Positions 26,406 to 49,946 of a DNA stretch of 64,000 nt are shown piece by piece. The notes under the pieces were generated by a model. That model made no database searches and was not told where the DNA came from. It saw only the letters and a program-made list of their open reading frames with translations. How positions within the stretch are numbered: the first letter of the stretch is position 1; each line of letters starts with the position of its first letter. The DNA comes from a virus, in the IMG/VR virus record IMGVR_UViG_3300010396_000042, positions 33,299-97,298 of that record. One strand, 5' to 3'. The position numbers were made by a program, and so were the translations under genes.

Positions 26406-26440
26406 TCGCTGCCGGTGATCCGCACGGCTACCGTGATCTC

Positions 26441-26522
26441 GTCCCGGTGCGATAGGCGACGGTTACTTCCTCTCCTCTCCAGAGAACCCAAGAACACCGC
26501 CGCCGGCCTTCGATCTCGGGGC
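26441..26522 (+). ncRNA. Candidate Y RNA A (no tRNA-like module)
   Basis: Outer stem GTCCCGG (26441-26447) with TCGGGGC (26516-26522), all seven positions paired (one T-G, one G-T). Then a conserved internal loop (TGCG on the left, CTTCGATC on the right), then an inner stem GGCGACGGT (26455-26463) with ACCGCCGCC (26496-26504), eight of nine paired. The terminal loop (26464-26495) starts with the conserved TACTTC and is pyrimidine-rich; it has no T-arm or acceptor. This is the simple Y RNA design: Ro-binding stem plus a loop. Its outer boxes are the same as those of the four tRNA-like RNAs downstream. Confidence 0.7.
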
Positions 26523-26547
26523 ACACAACTGAACAATGACTGCGAAC

Positions 26548-26682
26548 GCCCGCCAGGTGCGTAGGAGAGAGCTACTTCCAACTTGCTGATTGGGTGGTCC
26601 GGGTTCGAATCCCGGCGGACCTTCGGGTCTGTGGTGTAACGGCAGCACTCTTGTCGCTTTCCCCGATTCGATCTCTGGCGGC
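26548..26682 (+). ncRNA. Candidate Y RNA B, tRNA-like, UUCG-capped acceptor stem
   Basis: Outer stem GCCcGCCAGG (26548-26557) with TCTGGCGGC (26674-26682); inner stem GGAGAGAGC (26564-26572) with GCTTTCCCC (26656-26664). Inside, in permuted order: T-arm CCGGG-TTCGAAT-CCCGG (26599-26615), then acceptor strands CGGACC (26616-26621) and GGTCTG (26626-26631) closed by the tetraloop TTCG (26622-26625), then D-arm GTGT/GCAC (26634-26648) with GG in its loop. A free 3' end for CCA is impossible, so this is a tRNA mimic, as in the tRNA-like module of bacterial YrlA RNAs. Confidence 0.85.
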
Positions 26683-26699
26683 ACTCGCAGTGGAACGCA

Positions 26700-26804
26700 C
26701 CTCCCGGTGCGCAGGCCACAGGTACTTCTTGGTCACCATGGGTTCAAATCCCATCCGCGCCCTGACCGGCGCGGGGTTCCTGCAGCCGCTTCGATCTCGG
26801 GAGG
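26700..26804 (+). ncRNA. Candidate Y RNA C, tRNA-like, D-arm lost
   Basis: Outer stem CCTCCCGG (26700-26707) with TCGGGAGG (26797-26804), eight pairs. Inner stem GGC-CA-CAGG (26714-26722) with CCTG-CA-GCC (26779-26787), seven pairs around a CA/CA mismatch. Inside: T-arm ATGGG-TTCAAAT-CCCAT (26738-26754), acceptor CCGCGCC (26755-26761) with GGCGCGG (26768-26774), seven perfect pairs closed by loop CTGACC. Only GGTT replaces the D-arm, so this copy keeps the acceptor/T half of the tRNA fold but not the elbow partner. Confidence 0.85.
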
Positions 26805-26832
26805 ATCGAACGCTGAACAACTGAATACGGCA

Positions 26833-26986
26833 CCTCCCGGTGCGCAAGGCGAGGAGTTCTTCACAGTCGTCGCGGGTTCAAATCCCGTCGCCCGCAACAC
26901 GTGGGGCGTGGCTGAGCGGCCTAAAGCGCAGGGCCCACGAGGCCCTGTTCGACGGACGAGCCTCACCTGTTCTCGATCTCGGGAGG
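26833..26986 (+). ncRNA. Candidate Y RNA D, tRNA-Ser/Leu-like with extra hairpin
   Basis: Outer stem CCTCCCGG (26833-26840) with TCGGGAGG (26979-26986). Inner stem AGGCGAGG (26847-26854) with CCTCACCT (26961-26968), seven of eight paired. Inside: T-arm GCGGG-TTCAAAT-CCCGT (26872-26888), acceptor CGCCCGC (26889-26895) with GTGGGGCG (26901-26908; one G too many, bulged or an indel), loop AACAC, D-arm with GCT/AGC, then a hairpin AGGGC-7 nt-GCCCT (26930-26946) like an anticodon arm with ACG in the loop. This is the longest member. Confidence 0.83.
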
Positions 26987-27000
26987 GACAGCATTGGGGT

Positions 27001-27139
27001 CACGCCCGGTGCGCAGGTAACGGGTCCTTCGGAATCAAGGGTTACTGGTTCGAGTCCAGTCGCCGCCCTCACCGGCGGTGTGGCTCAATTGGTAGAGCAT
27101 TGGTCTAACAACCCCGTCGCCGCTTCGATCTCGGGCGTG
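27001..27139 (+). ncRNA. Candidate Y RNA E, most complete tRNA mimic
   Basis: Outer stem CACGCCCGG (27001-27009) with TCGGGCGTG (27131-27139), nine pairs. Inner stem GGTAACGGGT (27016-27025) with ACCCCGTCGCC (27111-27121). Inside: ATCAA (27034-27038) pairs with TTGGT (27100-27104) as an anticodon stem; T-arm ACTGG-TTCGAGT-CCAGT (27044-27060); acceptor CGCCGCC (27061-27067) with GGCGGTG (27074-27080), seven pairs closed by CTCACC; D-arm GCTC/GAGC with GG in the loop. All four tRNA helices are present in circularly permuted order. It ends 47 bases before the Ro60 start codon. Confidence 0.87.
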
Positions 27140-27186
27140 GCCACTCTTCTCTCCTCCCACCGCATCCGTTCGATGGGAGTCGAGCC

Positions 27187-28842
27187 TTGTCCCGCTTCAA
27201 CACCCCGGCCGCCAAGCCGGCCGTCCACTCCCCGATCGCCACCCAGGCCGTGGCCACCATCAGCACCCATGAGGGCGCGCCGGGTTATGCCCGATCGGAC
27301 GCTAAGGGTGAGCTGTTTCTGCTCGCGGTCTCCAACCTGGTGGGCAAGAACACCTTCTACGAGCAGGCCGGCGCCCGTGACGAGCGGTTCGAGCGCCTCA
27401 TCCACCAGGTCGCGATCGAGGATCCCGCCTGGCTCTCACGCTTCATCCCCTGGCTGCGCGGCGAGGCCAACATGCGCACCGCGTCCCTGGTCGCGGCCGC
27501 GGAGGCGGTCAAAGCACGCCTGGACGCCGCTAAGGGGACCGCCAACAACCTCGGCGCCCAGCTCACGGTCGGCCAGCAGACCGACGAGCACACCGCGGGC
27601 GGCCAGAACCGCAAGCTGATCGATGCCGCGTGCCAGCGCGCGGACGAGCCCGGAGAGCTGCTCGCCTACTGGACGTCCCGCTACGGTCGCGCGATCCCCA
27701 AGCCGGTCAAGCGCGGCCTGGCCGACGCCGTGCGCCGCCTCTACAGCGAGCGGTCGCTGCTCAAGTACGACACCGACTCCAAGGGCTACCGCTTCGGCGA
27801 CGTCATCGACCTCGTACACCCCTCCCCCGCTGTGGACCGGCGCTGGCAGGGCGAGCTGTTCGAGCACGCCCTCGACCGCCGCCACGGGCGCGACAAACCG
27901 ATCCCCGCCGGCCTGTCCACGCTGATCGACCGCGAGCGGCTGATGGCCACACCGCTCGACCAGCGCCGCGAGACACTGCGCCGACACCCCGAGCTCCTTG
28001 CGCGCGCCGGCATGACCTGGGAGGCCCTCGCGGGCTGGCTGCAGGGCCCGATGGACGCCGAGGCGTGGTCGGCGATGATCCCGTCCATGGGGTACTTCGC
28101 GCTGCTGCGCAACCTGCGCAACTTCGACCAGGCCGGCGTGCCCGACGAGGTCGCCGAGAGCGTGGCCGCGCGCCTCGCGGACCCATCACAGGTCGCATCC
28201 TCCCGCCTGTTCCCGTTCCGGTTCTACGCCGCGCACAAGAACACCGGCTCGCTGCGCTGGGGCCACGCCCTGGAGAAGGCGCTGCGCGCGTCCCTCTCCA
28301 ACATCCCGGCGCTTCCCGGCCGCACGCTGGTGCTCATCGACCAGTCGCCGTCGATGTTCCCCGGCTTCCACTTCTCAACGCCCAGCGACAGCGACATCTC
28401 CGCCGCGGAGAAGGCCGCGCTGTTCGGCGCCGCCGTGGCGCTGCGCGCGCAGAACGCCGACCTGGTCGGGTACGGGCAGAACAACTACCGGGTGCCGTTC
28501 GGCAAGGGCGACGCGGTGTTGGAGGTGATGAAGCGCTTCCGGATGGACGACGGCACGGACACCCCGCGCGCGATGGTCGAGCACTTCCGCGGCCATGACC
28601 GGGTGCTGATCGTCACCGACGAGCAGACCGCGTACTCGAACACCGGCCGCACCGTCGACAACGCCGTGCCGGCCAACGTTCCTGTCTACACCTGGAACCT
28701 CGCCGGTTACCGGCCCGGGCACGCCCCATCCGGCACGAGGAACCGCCACACCTTCGGCGGCCTGACCGACCACGCCTTCAAGATGGTGCCGCTGCTCGAG
28801 GCGGGACGGGGCCAGCAGTGGGATGTCGTATTCGGCAAATAG
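27187..28842 (+). CDS. Ro60-family RNA-binding protein (TROVE plus vWA domain)
   Basis: 551 aa, close to Ro60's usual length. The TTG start is supported by GGGAG seven bases upstream. Residues about 15-370 are the helical-repeat TROVE ring (for example F-L-L-A-V-S-N-L-V-G-K-N-T-F-Y-E near 42 and W-L-S-R-F-I-P-W-L-R near 81). The C-terminal vWA domain has a MIDAS D-Q-S-P-S near 386-390 and V-T-D-E-Q near 475. Ro proteins bind Y RNAs on the outer rim and misfolded RNA ends in the central hole, and in bacteria work with exonucleases in RNA quality control. The five tRNA-like RNAs directly upstream are its obvious partners. Confidence 0.95.
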   Translation: MSRFNTPAAKPAVHSPIATQAVATISTHEGAPGYARSDAKGELFLLAVSNLVGKNTFYEQAGARDERFERLIHQVAIEDPAWLSRFIPWLRGEANMRTASLVAAAEAVKARLDAAKGTANNLGAQLTVGQQTDEHTAGGQNRKLIDAACQRADEPGELLAYWTSRYGRAIPKPVKRGLADAVRRLYSERSLLKYDTDSKGYRFGDVIDLVHPSPAVDRRWQGELFEHALDRRHGRDKPIPAGLSTLIDRERLMATPLDQRRETLRRHPELLARAGMTWEALAGWLQGPMDAEAWSAMIPSMGYFALLRNLRNFDQAGVPDEVAESVAARLADPSQVASSRLFPFRFYAAHKNTGSLRWGHALEKALRASLSNIPALPGRTLVLIDQSPSMFPGFHFSTPSDSDISAAEKAALFGAAVALRAQNADLVGYGQNNYRVPFGKGDAVLEVMKRFRMDDGTDTPRAMVEHFRGHDRVLIVTDEQTAYSNTGRTVDNAVPANVPVYTWNLAGYRPGHAPSGTRNRHTFGGLTDHAFKMVPLLEAGRGQQWDVVFGK

Positions 28843-34941: not shown

Positions 34942-35634
34942 ATGCACATCCTGCTGCAGGGCATCGTCGGCTCGACCGCGTACGGCCTTGCCGGACCCGA
35001 GAGCGACGTCGACCGCGCCGGCGTGTTCGCGCACCCCACCGCGCTGCTGTTCGGCCTATCGAAGCCCGCCGAGTCGATCGTCACCACCAAGCCCGACGTG
35101 ACGTATCACGAGGCTGAAAAAGCGTGTCGGCTCATGCTCAGCTGCAACCCGACCGCGATGGAAACCCTCTGGCTCGAGTCCTGGGAGATCAAGACCGCGC
35201 TCGGGGACGAGCTGGTCGGGCTGCGCTCCGCGTTCCTGTCGGCACGGCGCGTACGCGAGGCGTATCTGGGCTATGCGACCGACCAGTTCCGCAAGGCGAT
35301 CAACTGCGCCGACGGCTCCTTCAATTCCGACATCCCGCCGCGGCGCGCGAGCAAGCACGCCAGGCACCTGATGCGCCTGGTCGAGCAGGGGTTCGAGCTG
35401 TACGCCACCGGGCGGCTGCACATCCGGGTCGAGGACCCGCAGCGCTACATCGACTTCGGTGAACGCACCGCCGCCGACCCGCTCTCCGCGCTGCCGTATC
35501 TGACCGAGGCGCGCCAGCGCTTCGACCGCACGCCCTCAGCGCTGCCGGAGGAACCCAGAAGGGGCGCGGTCGAATCCTGGCTGCGCCGGGTGCGCGCCGA
35601 GTACTACCGCGTTCCGGCGGCCGCCGATGCGTGA
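34942..35634 (+). CDS. RlaP-type nucleotidyltransferase (RNA repair)
   Basis: 230 aa, whole-length match to the predicted polymerase-beta-superfamily nucleotidyltransferases of the RlaP type: G-S-T-A-Y-G-L at 10-16, catalytic D-V-D at 22-24, then Y-H-E-A-E-K near 55 and the helical C-terminal domain with F-R-K-A-I-N. In other genomes these proteins sit with RNA ligases and end-healing enzymes and are thought to act in RNA repair. Here it is coupled by an 8-base overlap to a Pnkp-type 3'-phosphatase, and lies 6 kb from Ro60 and its tRNA-like RNAs. Confidence 0.88.
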   Translation: MHILLQGIVGSTAYGLAGPESDVDRAGVFAHPTALLFGLSKPAESIVTTKPDVTYHEAEKACRLMLSCNPTAMETLWLESWEIKTALGDELVGLRSAFLSARRVREAYLGYATDQFRKAINCADGSFNSDIPPRRASKHARHLMRLVEQGFELYATGRLHIRVEDPQRYIDFGERTAADPLSALPYLTEARQRFDRTPSALPEEPRRGAVESWLRRVRAEYYRVPAAADA

Positions 35635-36259
35635 ACGCGCGCAGCTACCCGAAGCCGTGGTGTTCGATTGTGATGGGACGCTCGTCGACGTCTCCTCGAT
35701 CCGGCACCTGGTGGCCGGCGGCCCGGAGAACGGCTACCGCAAGGACTTCGACTCCTTCCACCGCGAGGCGGTCAACTGCCCGCCGCACCCATGGGTGGTC
35801 CAGGCCGCGCAGGCCGAGCACGCCGCCGGCCGCGCGGTGCTCATCGTCACCGGGCGCTGCGCCGAGTACCGCAATTCCACCGCGTTCTGGCTCGCGATGC
35901 ACGACGTGCCATCGGACGCGATGTGGATGCGGGCCCGCGGCGATTACCGGCCCGACTACGTGGTCAAGGCCGAGATCCTCGCGAAGATCCGCACGCGCTG
36001 GCGTGTGGTGCGTGCGTACGACGACAACCCAAACGTCCTGAGACTCTGGGCCCAGGAACGCATCGCGACCGTCGTCGTCCCGGGATGGGAGCTGCAGAAC
36101 GAGCACCACGACGAGGACGCGGACCGCGAGCAGTTCCGGCGCGAACGCGAGGGCCGCTGGACGGTCAGTCCACCATGCCACACTGATCACGAAGCGAGCG
36201 CGGTGCGTGACCGCGCGAACACCGAACGAGAGAGACGAGCATGGCTACCGGCACGGTGA
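35627..36259 (+). CDS. Polynucleotide 3'-phosphatase (T4 Pnkp phosphatase-like HAD)
   Basis: 210 aa. HAD motifs: V-F-D-C-D-G-T-L near 12-19 (nucleophile D14, acid/base D16), T-G-R near 83, V-V-K-A-E-I-L near 117 (Lys), Y-D-D-N near 132 (DD pair). The G-D-Y-R-P-D...V-K signature and the length match the C-terminal 3'-phosphatase domain of T4 polynucleotide kinase, here without the kinase domain. It would remove 3'-phosphate or 2',3'-cyclic phosphate from cleaved RNA, preparing ends for ligation or nucleotide addition by the upstream enzyme. Confidence 0.88.
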
Positions 36260-47541: not shown

Positions 47542-47867
47542 CCGAGGCGACCCAGCACCCGATGACCCTGGAAATCCTCACCGGACTCGTGCCGCTGCAC
47601 ATCCTGCGGCTCATGCACCACCCCGGCGAACTCACTCGCGCCCAATGCGAGTCCGGCGAACTGGCCGACACCATCGCCGAATACGGCGACCGTCTCACCA
47701 ATCCTGGCAGCTTCTCAGACCGCGGTCACCGCGCGGAACGCTCTCGGCTCCTCAACGCCATCGCCACGGGCCTCGCGCTCGGAGCCCTCAAGCCCGGCGG
47801 CATCACCTGGGCCGGGCTGCATTGGTGCACCGAAACCCATACTGCCTGCCCTAACCGGAGCTCGTGA
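47538..47867 (+). CDS. Hypothetical protein (109 aa)
   Basis: ATGA overlap with the sigma-like gene. [19 protein letters not shown] and [12 protein letters not shown] helices, then W-A-G-L-H-W-C. Overlaps the integrase start. Function unknown. Confidence 0.66.
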
Positions 47868-49354
47868 TGGCCGCACCCCGAGAACTCGACCTCACTGTCA
47901 CCCTGGACGACGCGTGGCGTACGTATGAGAAGCACCTGCTCGCCCGCGTCGACGCCGACACGTTCAGCGCCCAGTCCGCCCGCGGCTATCTCGCCTACTC
48001 CCGGCGACTCGTCGACCACCTCGGCCCCCAGCGCACCTGCGACAGCGTCGAGGCAAGCGAGATCGTCGCATGGCTCGCGCACTACCGTTCCAGCGGTGCC
48101 CGCCGACCGACCTACGTCCAGAAGGGCGCCGGCCCGGCGACGCTTCGCCACTGCCACAAGTCCGCCAAGGGCCTCTTCGCGTTCGCCGACTCCAACCGGT
48201 GGCTACGGGAGAACCCGATGCGCGACACCGTCGCACCTCCACTGCCGCGCAAGACCGCCGGACCCGAACGCGCGGCCCTCAGCCGCCCGGAACTCGAAGC
48301 GCTCATCGCGGCGGCCCGCACCGGCAAAGGCTCCTACCGCGGCGACCGCGGAGCCTGGGTGCGCGACGAGATCGTGATCCGGCTCACCGGCGAATCAGGG
48401 CTACGTAACGGCGACGTGCAGAACCTCGACCTCGGTGACATCGAAGCCGACCCCGCGGGCCACTGGGTGGCCCAGATCCGCCGGGGCAAGGGCCGCAAGG
48501 CACGCACCGTTCCGCTCACCGACGCCTGCGCCACACTGATCCGCGACTACATCGACCAGTGGCGCCCGCAGCCGGCCGGCACGCCTGACCGCTACGACAA
48601 GAATCACCACCTCATCAAGGGCGACGCGCAAGCGCTTCTGCTGTCGCCGGACCGGCACCGTTTCAACGCTGCGATGGTCCGCCGGATCGTGGAGCGCTGC
48701 GCACAGTCCGCGCTCGGCCGCCACTATGTGCCGCATGGCCTGCGCCACACCACCGGAACTCTGCTCGCCCGCGAGGCGAAGGCCGACCCGGCGCTGATCG
48801 CGCATATCCTCGGCCACTCCGACATCTCGGTGACATCCGTCTACCTGGACACTACGACCGACGAGGCCGCCGCCGCCGTAAACCGGCGCAAGGTCGGCGC
48901 GCGGGCCAAGGCGCCGAAGGAACTGCCACCGAGCAAGGACGATCCGCGCTGGCCGGAGTGCGGCACCCGCGAGGGCTGGAATCGGCATAAGCGTGAGCGC
49001 ATCCCGCGGTGCTCGCCATGCCGCATGTGGAAACGAGAGGACACGCAACGGGCGGAGCTCAACAGGCTGGAGCGGGACCTCGCGCGAGCGCACCGTACCA
49101 TCGCCGATCAGGCCGAGCAGATCCGTAAACTGCGGGATCAGGCGCAGCGTAGCGCCGTGGGTCTCAGCGCGCGGCCTCGGGGTCGCTGCCCAGTGTGCAC
49201 ACGCCTGATCTCAGTGACGGAGAAGGGCGTGATGCGGGTGCACGACTGTCCCGGCACAGGCCAGCCGCCATTGGCGATTCTCTCGACCGCGCCAATCGTC
49301 GGTGTCGAAGCCAGTCAGTCATCATTCGTGGACGATCTCGCAGGTGCAGCATGA
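47867..49354 (+). CDS. int: Tyrosine recombinase (integrase) with C-terminal zinc ribbon
   Basis: 495 aa. A core-binding helical N-terminus (about 10-115), then the catalytic domain: R in G-E-S-G-L-R-N-G-D near 178, H-G-L-R-H near 290-294, and L-G-H-S...V-Y-L-D near 315-327 with the nucleophilic Tyr. About 150 extra residues follow: a C-x2-C pair near 382, a coiled coil, then C-P-V-C...H-D-C-P zinc ribbon. The extension is unusual and resembles the coil-plus-ribbon of the product at 14850. The tRNA-Glu pair 400 bp downstream could be the attachment target. Confidence 0.9.
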   Translation: MAAPRELDLTVTLDDAWRTYEKHLLARVDADTFSAQSARGYLAYSRRLVDHLGPQRTCDSVEASEIVAWLAHYRSSGARRPTYVQKGAGPATLRHCHKSAKGLFAFADSNRWLRENPMRDTVAPPLPRKTAGPERAALSRPELEALIAAARTGKGSYRGDRGAWVRDEIVIRLTGESGLRNGDVQNLDLGDIEADPAGHWVAQIRRGKGRKARTVPLTDACATLIRDYIDQWRPQPAGTPDRYDKNHHLIKGDAQALLLSPDRHRFNAAMVRRIVERCAQSALGRHYVPHGLRHTTGTLLAREAKADPALIAHILGHSDISVTSVYLDTTTDEAAAAVNRRKVGARAKAPKELPPSKDDPRWPECGTREGWNRHKRERIPRCSPCRMWKREDTQRAELNRLERDLARAHRTIADQAEQIRKLRDQAQRSAVGLSARPRGRCPVCTRLISVTEKGVMRVHDCPGTGQPPLAILSTAPIVGVEASQSSFVDDLAGAA

Positions 49355-49757: not shown

Positions 49758-49830
49758 GCCCCGGTCGTCTAGCGGCCTAGGATCTCCGGTTCTCAGCCGG
49801 CCAGCACCGGTTCGAATCCGGTCCGGGGCG
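49758..49830 (+). tRNA. tRNA-Glu (anticodon CTC)
   Basis: Acceptor GCCCCGG with CCGGGGC, seven pairs; T-arm ACCGG-TTCGAAT-CCGGT; anticodon loop TTCTCAG gives CTC. CCA not encoded. Two bases separate it from the next tRNA. Confidence 0.88.
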
Positions 49831-49831
49831 C

Positions 49832-49905
49832 GGCGCCGTCGTCTAGCGGTCCAGGACCCCGGACCTTCAATCCGGCCAGCACCGGTTCGAATCCGGTCGG
49901 CGTCA
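49832..49905 (+). tRNA. tRNA-Glu (anticodon TTC) with C at position 33
   Basis: Acceptor GGCGCCG with CGGCGTC (one G-T); T-arm ACCGG-TTCGAAT-CCGGT; anticodon stem CCGGA/TCCGG with loop CCTTCAA, giving TTC. The base before the anticodon is C where nearly all elongator tRNAs have U, so function may be impaired or specialised. Confidence 0.82.
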
Positions 49906-49946
49906 CACCGCATCAGCAATCGCTGACACACGATCAGGAGTCCCCA

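What the first reader, a model, noticed from the sequence alone, without database searches (positions are those of the whole stretch)
26441..27139. Tandem array of five Y-RNA-like genes directly upstream of Ro60
Five RNAs (26441-26522, 26548-26682, 26700-26804, 26833-26986, 27001-27139) share the order: outer stem, conserved left box (GGTGCG), inner stem, TACTTC-like box, module, inner stem, conserved right box (TTCGATCTC), outer stem. Both stems differ in sequence between copies yet keep pairing: outer GTCCCGG/TCGGGGC, GCCcGCCAGG/TCTGGCGGC, CCTCCCGG/TCGGGAGG (twice), CACGCCCGG/TCGGGCGTG; inner GGCGACGGT/ACCGCCGCC, GGAGAGAGC/GCTTTCCCC, GGCCACAGG/CCTGCAGCC, AGGCGAGG/CCTCACCT, GGTAACGGGT/ACCCCGTCGCC. 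Such covariation is strong evidence of RNA structure. Ro proteins are known to bind Y RNAs; a bacterial element with five different ones in a row is not something I know described.
Basis: partly seen in the sequence, partly recalled or inferred. Interest (0 to 1): 0.96.

Follow-up and report, generated by a model that had tools for sequence, protein, structure and literature searches.

The report
Phage Y-RNA array displaying permuted tRNAs
An actinobacterial prophage carries five small structured RNAs in a row beside the gene for their Ro60 partner protein, and four of them hold a tRNA imitation whose parts are in rotated order and which cannot carry an amino acid; similar arrays, many with a real-looking anticodon loop, occur in other phages and in most of the actinobacterial Ro60 loci examined, and their job is still unproven.

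Summary
In detail: five Y-RNA-like units lie directly upstream of a TROVE/Ro60 gene (27187-28842), with both stems covarying between copies. Units 2-5 enclose circularly permuted tRNA modules (T arm, acceptor 3' strand, short loop, acceptor 5' strand, usually D arm), the YrlA type; Rfam's YrlA model finds units 5 and 2, below its gathering score. The record is a temperate tailed phage that also carries RlaP and a PNKP phosphatase domain. Tandem arrays are not unique: a stem-and-box scan finds up to 8 units upstream of Ro in many phages and 2-4 in most of 80 actinobacterial chromosomal Ro loci. Many modules also hold an anticodon arm, which the Rfam YrlA model lacks: 124 five-pair arms, 112 with U33, 28 anticodons. 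The anticodon is among the most variable parts of an otherwise conserved unit; acceptor loops of mostly 2-7 nt leave no chargeable end. Several GenBank phage 'tRNAs' beside Ro are such units misread. Identity is near certain. Function is inferred: most likely Ro-displayed tRNA decoys for tRNA-acting enzymes. Ro binding and expression were not tested; the key Y RNA papers were not available to check novelty.

The parts
26441..26522 (+). Y RNA unit 1, minimal type (no tRNA module, short apical hairpin)
   Evidence: Nested covarying stems and boxes; model R1 26.2 bits, E 0.0015
26547..26683 (+). Y RNA unit 2 with permuted tRNA module: anticodon-like arm 26577-26594 (8-nt loop CTTGCTGA), T arm 26599-26615, acceptor 3' strand 26616-26622, 2-nt loop, acceptor 5' strand 26625-26631, then D arm
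   Evidence: R1 102.1 bits (unit is in the model's alignment); RF02553 YrlA 26.2 bits, E 0.0035; called a tRNA by ARAGORN and RF00005 29.7 bits; parsed
26700..26805 (+). Y RNA unit 3 with T arm and acceptor stem, no D arm
   Evidence: R1 58.7 bits; parsed; fold z -2.87
26833..26986 (+). Y RNA unit 4: T arm, acceptor stem, class-II-like D arm, and a 7-nt-loop hairpin AGGGC/CCACGAG/GCCCT after the D arm (different permutation point)
   Evidence: R1 50.7 bits; sequence and fold
26998..27142 (+). Y RNA unit 5, classical YrlA type (no separate anticodon arm)
   Evidence: RF02553 YrlA 37.8 bits, E 1.6e-6 at 27017-27126; R1 91.4 bits (unit is in the model's alignment); fold z -3.30
27187..28842 (+). 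Ro60/TROVE protein, 551 aa, with vWA metal-site motif (D385, S387, S389, T457, D478) and His211 aligned with His187 of animal Ro60
   Evidence: PF05731 E 5.2e-14; PHROG 850 E 1.1e-45; profile matches to D. radiodurans Rsr 2nvo and Ro60 1yvp/9nen; invariant columns
34942..35634 (+). RlaP-family nucleotidyltransferase (RNA repair); possibly functionally linked
   Evidence: PF10127 E 1.3e-18
35627..36259 (+). PNKP-type polynucleotide phosphatase domain protein; possibly functionally linked
   Evidence: PF25109 E 1.6e-19; PHROG 415 E 3e-40

Best explanation
The stretch is a tandem array of five Y RNA genes serving the Ro60 protein encoded just downstream. Each RNA has a conserved bulged stem for Ro binding. 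Four RNAs carry, at the far end, a tRNA mimic built as a circular permutation: the acceptor stem is closed by a short loop, so there is no free 3' CCA end and it cannot be charged, while T, acceptor and usually D arms are kept. In many relatives an anticodon arm is also kept, with a freely varying anticodon. Proposed action: Ro holds several different non-chargeable tRNA mimics and presents them to proteins that recognise tRNA, acting as decoys or recruiters, in the phage most plausibly against tRNA-cutting host defences or toxins and alongside the RlaP and PNKP-phosphatase genes. Shown by sequence: array, stems, covariation, permuted modules, anticodon-loop conservation and anticodon variability, Ro identity. 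Inferred: transcription, Ro binding, decoy action. My separate estimates: identity as Y RNAs with permuted tRNA mimics 0.93; decoy or recruiter function 0.4.
For: Covariation of both Y stems; 30-unit alignment with 95.8% of cells paired, 169 double changes against 55 in shuffles, covariation 0.567 against 0.167, slid controls at most 0.138; RF02553 YrlA matches in the window and in phage and bacterial relatives; 60 units scoring at least 15 upstream of Ro in 22 viral loci, against 0-5 in shuffles and 2 downstream. Modules: 268 of 448 units hold a permuted T arm plus acceptor stem; 124 have a 5-pair anticodon arm, 112 with U33, against 1-10 in shuffles; 116 of 117 are ARAGORN tRNAs after unpermuting, 28 anticodons, and none of 1710 shuffles was called in the smaller test. 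Acceptor loops mostly 2-7 nt, 9 of 106 with CCA. In 31 related units positions 34-35 are among the most variable columns while U33 is fixed; 12 of 12 loci with two or more anticodon arms show different anticodons. RlaP and PNKP phosphatase in the same phage. A published suggestion that the YrlA tRNA-like domain may competitively inhibit an anticodon nuclease: PMC7790460; phage tRNAs proposed to counter tRNA-targeting defences: PMC10264068.
Against: No expression, Ro-binding or nuclease data for this phage. In the window itself only U2 keeps an anticodon arm in the main configuration and its loop has 8 nt; U3 and U5 have none and U1 has no module, so a decoy of anticodon nucleases is not well supported here specifically. 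Arrays are also chromosomal in Streptomyces (87 of 150 genomes have a match to this Ro), so the function cannot be purely counter-defence. The ARAGORN test is partly circular because the parser already required tRNA-like arms; the independent parts are U33, C32, A38 and the anticodon spread. Anticodon variability could also be absence of constraint.
Confidence: 0.5

Rival explanations
1. The RNAs tether Ro to a 3'-5' exoribonuclease such as PNPase, forming RYPER-like RNA degradation machines; the tRNA-like modules are the exonuclease-binding or gating ends, and several RNAs give several versions of the machine.
For: RYPER is the one characterised mechanism of a bacterial Ro-Y RNA complex (described in PMC8394870; PMC8058203). 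The authors of PMC12282133 proposed it for Listeria phage CKA15, whose three most transcribed regions lie within 2 kb upstream of an Rsr homologue.
Against: Does not explain why anticodon arms with U33 are kept while anticodons vary, or why different mimics sit in one locus.
Confidence: 0.3
2. Generic tRNA mimicry: the modules hijack host tRNA modification or processing enzymes, or simply give the Y RNA stability, with no defence role.
For: YrlA is reported to be modified by DusA and TruB (PMC8394870); several T-loop and D-arm letters are invariant in the 30 aligned units; modules are about 70% identical to real tRNAs and mostly not isotype-matched.
Against: Would not obviously require several different modules per locus or conserved anticodon-loop positions.
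Confidence: 0.2
3. These are circularly permuted tRNA genes that are processed into working tRNAs, the Y stem being removed and the ends ligated.
For: Unpermuted sequences are called tRNAs with 28 anticodons; permuted tRNA genes are known in other organisms (a review, PMC3978253, was listed but not read); an RNA ligase gene sits beside Ro in phage JustBecause.
Against: Acceptor loops mostly 2-7 nt with CCA in 9 of 106; bodies rarely match the isotype of their anticodon, 13 of 116; some modules lack a D arm or have an 8-nt anticodon loop (window U3, U2); the Y stems covary and are kept.
Confidence: 0.04
4. The array is a structured leader of the Ro mRNA for autoregulation, not a set of independent RNAs.
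For: All units are on the Ro strand, in the 0.75 kb directly before its start codon.
Against: Units have separate, independently covarying closed stems; some Streptomyces units lie without Ro nearby (L222, L223); in P100 stem-loops also precede an Rsr-like gene, and the related phage CKA15 shows very strong transcription of unannotated regions upstream of its Rsr.
Confidence: 0.08
5. The region is a decayed array of ordinary tRNA genes and the Y stems are coincidence.
For: ARAGORN and Rfam tRNA call a tRNA in unit 2; tandem real tRNA genes appear to reach about 60 bits with model R1.
Against: Order of arms is permuted and enclosed by covarying stems; shuffles and downstream regions give few units.
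Confidence: 0.01

Closest known systems
YrlA bacterial Y RNAs (Rfam RF02553; Salmonella YrlA, structure 6CU1 cited in PMC8394870)
   Same: Ro-binding stem at the ends; permuted tRNA-like domain with T arm, closed acceptor stem and D arm; adjacent Ro60 gene
   Different: Tandem arrays of several different RNAs; scores below the family's gathering score (69 bits) in every locus scanned here; many relatives add a separate anticodon arm where the Rfam model has only a closing stem; minimal units without module are mixed in
Salmonella rsr-yrlBA-rtcBA RNA repair operon
   Same: Ro60, Y RNAs and RNA repair proteins in one element
   Different: Here RlaP and a PNKP phosphatase about 6 kb away rather than RtcB/RtcA; in the Streptomyces genomes compared, RtcB is not beside Ro; five Y RNAs instead of two
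Deinococcus Rsr-Y RNA-PNPase (RYPER)
   Same: Ro homologue (2nvo matched by profile, E 1.3e-19) with Y RNA
   Different: No evidence on a PNPase partner here; several tRNA-like modules
Putative Y RNAs of Listeria phage CKA15/P100 (PMC12282133)
   Same: Highly transcribed unannotated regions upstream of an Rsr homologue near tRNA genes; in P100 I see three short stem-loops with a repeated AACAGCAATTACTA-like motif directly before the gene
   Different: Much more divergent protein (DUF7788/DUF2828 matches) and no tRNA module seen; alignment to the Y RNA stems not tested
Circularly permuted tRNA genes of algae and archaea (recalled)
   Same: tRNA halves in reversed order joined by a short linker
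   Different: Not built for maturation: closed acceptor loop, flanking Y stem, poor isotype match; not a tRNA gene

Membership tests
Ro60/TROVE protein family | TROVE domain match | tested here: met
   PF05731 E 5.2e-14 above cut-off; profile to Rsr 2nvo E 1.3e-19, Ro60 1yvp E 9.5e-19
Ro60/TROVE protein family | vWA domain metal-site residues | tested here: met
   DxSxS (385-389), T457 and D478 invariant in 13 proteins; their role recalled, not tested
Ro60/TROVE protein family | Y-RNA-contacting His187 equivalent | tested here: met
   His211 invariant and aligned with the LSHLKP histidine of Ro60; its role recalled from memory
Bacterial Y RNA | Encoded next to a Ro60 gene | tested here: met
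   Array ends 44 nt before the Ro start codon
Bacterial Y RNA | Covarying basal stem | tested here: met
Bacterial Y RNA | Binding to Ro in the cell | not testable with these tools
   Needs purification and RNA sequencing
YrlA (RF02553) | Score above the Rfam gathering cut-off (69 bits) | tested here: not met
   Best window match 37.8 bits, E 1.6e-6
YrlA (RF02553) | Permuted T arm, closed acceptor stem, D arm | tested here: met
   Met in U2, U4, U5; D arm absent in U3; no module in U1
YrlA (RF02553) | No separate anticodon arm (closing stem in its place) | tested here: inconclusive
   U5 fits; U2 and many relatives carry an extra arm
Permuted tRNA gene | Linker able to yield 5' and CCA 3' ends | tested here: not met
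   U2 loop 2 nt, U3 and U5 6 nt, without CCA; relatives mostly 2-7 nt
Ordinary tRNA gene | Linear tRNA order with own acceptor stem ends | tested here: not met
   the ARAGORN call on U2 lacks a proper anticodon

The most novel reading that the evidence does not exclude
Actinobacteria and phages of several bacterial groups keep a repertoire of Ro60-displayed, non-chargeable, circularly permuted tRNA mimics whose anticodons diversify quickly, working as decoys against tRNA-cutting defences and toxins.
Probability: 0.28. Interest if true: 0.95.

Novelty: new variant of a known kind. Interest (0 to 1): 0.8.

Why it matters
What the tRNA-like part of bacterial Y RNAs is for is an open question. These arrays supply hundreds of natural variants, a strong clue (anticodon loop frame kept, anticodon free), tractable hosts (Streptomyces and its phages), and an RNA model that finds them. 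They also correct annotations: several GenBank phage tRNAs beside Ro genes are parts of Y RNAs, which affects studies of phage tRNA repertoires.

Tried and rejected
Folding-energy z-scores: too weak in GC-rich sequence to prove structure. DNA-level BLAST of the array in phages: no match. Joining the whole D side to the T side before ARAGORN gave erratic isotypes; cutting at the D arm end fixed it. Modules as copies of particular tRNA genes: rejected, bodies about 70% identical and isotype matched in 13 of 116. Enrichment of U36 (t6A-type) anticodons: looked strong in raw counts but is 23 of 47 in a non-redundant set against 20 of 60 in a subset of Streptomyces tRNAs, so not claimed. RtcB linkage: not adjacent to Ro in the genomes compared. 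Defence library: no match for Ro, RlaP or the phosphatase. RNAalifold on the 30-unit alignment misplaced the inner stem and missed the anticodon arm, so arms were named by hand and counted, without the inner stem. RlaP search in viral contigs: nothing. The main Y RNA papers (Chen 2014, Sim 2018 and 2020, Wang 2018) are not in the library.

Full report
What is there. The window is part of a 97,298-base virus record. Directly before a 551-residue TROVE/Ro60 protein (27187-28842) lie five units with the same order of parts. Both stems differ between copies and still pair: with the 8 units of two relatives (Ro 63% and 65% identical), own arms pair in 76 of 78 outer and 103 of 118 inner positions, against about 53 and 70 when arms are exchanged. 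Most inner stems have one internal mismatch, usually three pairs up.

What the modules are. Between the stems, U2, U4 and U5 hold a T arm, the 3' strand of an acceptor stem, a short loop, the 5' strand, and a D arm: a tRNA rotated so that its ends lie in the Y stem and its acceptor end is closed. U3 has the T arm and acceptor stem only; U1 has a small hairpin. Rfam's bacterial Y RNA model YrlA (RF02553), which has this permuted order, matches U5 (37.8 bits, E 1.6e-6) and U2 (26.2 bits), below its gathering score of 69. ARAGORN and Rfam tRNA misread U2 as a tRNA.

Phage context. Left of the window the record has terminase, portal, head protease, major head protein, tape measure and endolysin; inside are an integrase (47864-49354) and two tRNA-Glu genes. 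So this is a temperate tailed phage or prophage. It also has an RlaP RNA-repair nucleotidyltransferase and a PNKP phosphatase-domain protein 6 kb downstream of Ro.

Not unique. tblastn finds 50 phage records with this Ro. A scan for left box, TACTTC box and two nested stems gives 60 units scoring at least 15 in the 1.5 kb upstream of Ro in 22 viral loci, 0-5 in shuffles, 2 downstream: 8 candidates in Caulobacter phage CcrColossus, 6 in L003, 2-5 in Streptomyces, Gordonia, Xanthomonas and Brevundimonas phages; none in the Thermus, Microcystis and Vibrio phages. One haloarchaeal virus gives one candidate. In 80 actinobacterial genome loci there are 206 units, most loci with 2-4; in 80 viral contigs 182 units; 39 units in downstream control stretches of those 160 loci show the background of the scan in GC-rich DNA. 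87 of 150 Streptomyces genomes have a match to this Ro; the strongest model matches mostly lie beside it, but two units in L222 and L223 have no Ro within the 12 kb taken.

The anticodon arm. Many modules have an additional five-pair, seven-base hairpin starting at the TTC of TACTTC, where a tRNA's anticodon arm would be if the break lies between D arm and anticodon arm. Across 268 modules there are 124 such arms, 112 with U33 (1-10 in shuffles); C32 in 107, A38 in 115. Rejoined in tRNA order, 116 of 117 are called tRNAs with 28 anticodons; this test is partly circular because the parser required the arms. In the first, smaller set 8 units were called and none of 1710 shuffles. Reduced to 47 non-redundant modules: 42 with U33, 26 anticodons; all 12 loci with two or more such arms have different anticodons. 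Over 30 aligned units the six helices named by hand (outer, anticodon, T, acceptor, D) are 95.8% paired with 169 double changes against 55 in shuffles; the inner stem was not counted there. The window's U2 keeps the arm with an eight-base loop; its orthologue in L002 reads Ser(GCU) and in L009 Tyr(GUA), while stems, T and D arms are similar.

What it is not. Acceptor loops are mostly 2-7 bases and 9 of 106 contain CCA; bodies are about 70% identical to real tRNAs and match the isotype of their anticodon in 13 of 116. So they are neither working permuted tRNA genes nor recent tRNA copies. In 31 related actinobacterial units anticodon positions 34 and 35 are among the most variable columns, while U33 is fixed and 32 and 38 nearly so. 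That pattern fits a loop that must look like an anticodon loop whose triplet is free or diversifying.

How it may work. Shown by sequence: array, stems, permuted mimics, closed acceptor ends, anticodon variability, Ro identity with the RNA-contacting histidine aligned. Inferred: transcription, binding, function. The best reading is Ro-displayed, non-chargeable tRNA mimics that attract tRNA-acting proteins; in the phage, decoys against tRNA-cutting defences, an idea raised for YrlA in PMC7790460 and close to the proposal for phage tRNAs in PMC10264068. The main rival is a RYPER-like tether to PNPase. For expression the nearest evidence is Listeria phage CKA15, where the most transcribed unannotated regions lie upstream of an Rsr homologue (PMC12282133).

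Novelty. YrlA RNAs, their tRNA mimicry and Y RNAs in some phages are known. New as far as I could check: long arrays with mixed modules, anticodon arms with many anticodons, and their spread in actinobacterial chromosomes; none of the YrlA matches reaches Rfam's cut-off. The primary Y RNA papers could not be read, so part of this may already be described.

Noticed in passing
L012:3774-3847, L011:3769-3843, L014:3704-3775, L016:3745-3835, L021:3801-3868, L022:2885-2952, L018:2835-2905: GenBank features annotated as tRNA in Streptomyces, Gordonia, Xanthomonas and Caulobacter phages lie inside or overlap Y RNA units upstream of Ro, so they are probably misannotated.
   Followed up: partly
window 26523-26546 and 26806-26832: Spacers between units are conserved: ACACAACTGAACAATGACTGCGAACGCCC is nearly shared with L009, GAACAACTGAATAC with L002; perhaps processing sites.
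   Followed up: no
window 26420-26440; L002 and L009 equivalents: A TACCGT or TACGGT hexamer lies shortly before the first unit in all three close relatives, possibly a -10 promoter element.
   Followed up: no
L222:6103-6240 and L223:5641-5775: Y RNA units with anticodon arms (loops CTGTAAA and CTCTCAA) in Streptomyces genomes with no Ro gene within the 12 kb fetched.
   Followed up: partly
L031:23100-23470 (minus strand): Three short stem-loops with a repeated AACAGCAATTACTA-like motif directly before the Rsr-like gene of Listeria phage P100; candidate Y RNAs without tRNA module.
   Followed up: partly
L028:2835-2939: One Y-RNA-like candidate upstream of the TROVE gene of haloarchaeal virus HGTV-1; single weak case.
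   Followed up: no
window 47864-49354 and 49758-49906: Phage integrase next to two tRNA-Glu genes, a likely attachment site; to the right, among the proteins tested, only weak tail-spike-like matches were seen.
   Followed up: partly
PDB 9kop and 9l5y: Solved TROVE domain-containing proteins much closer to this Ro group than Rsr or Ro60; no paper on them found in the library.
   Followed up: partly
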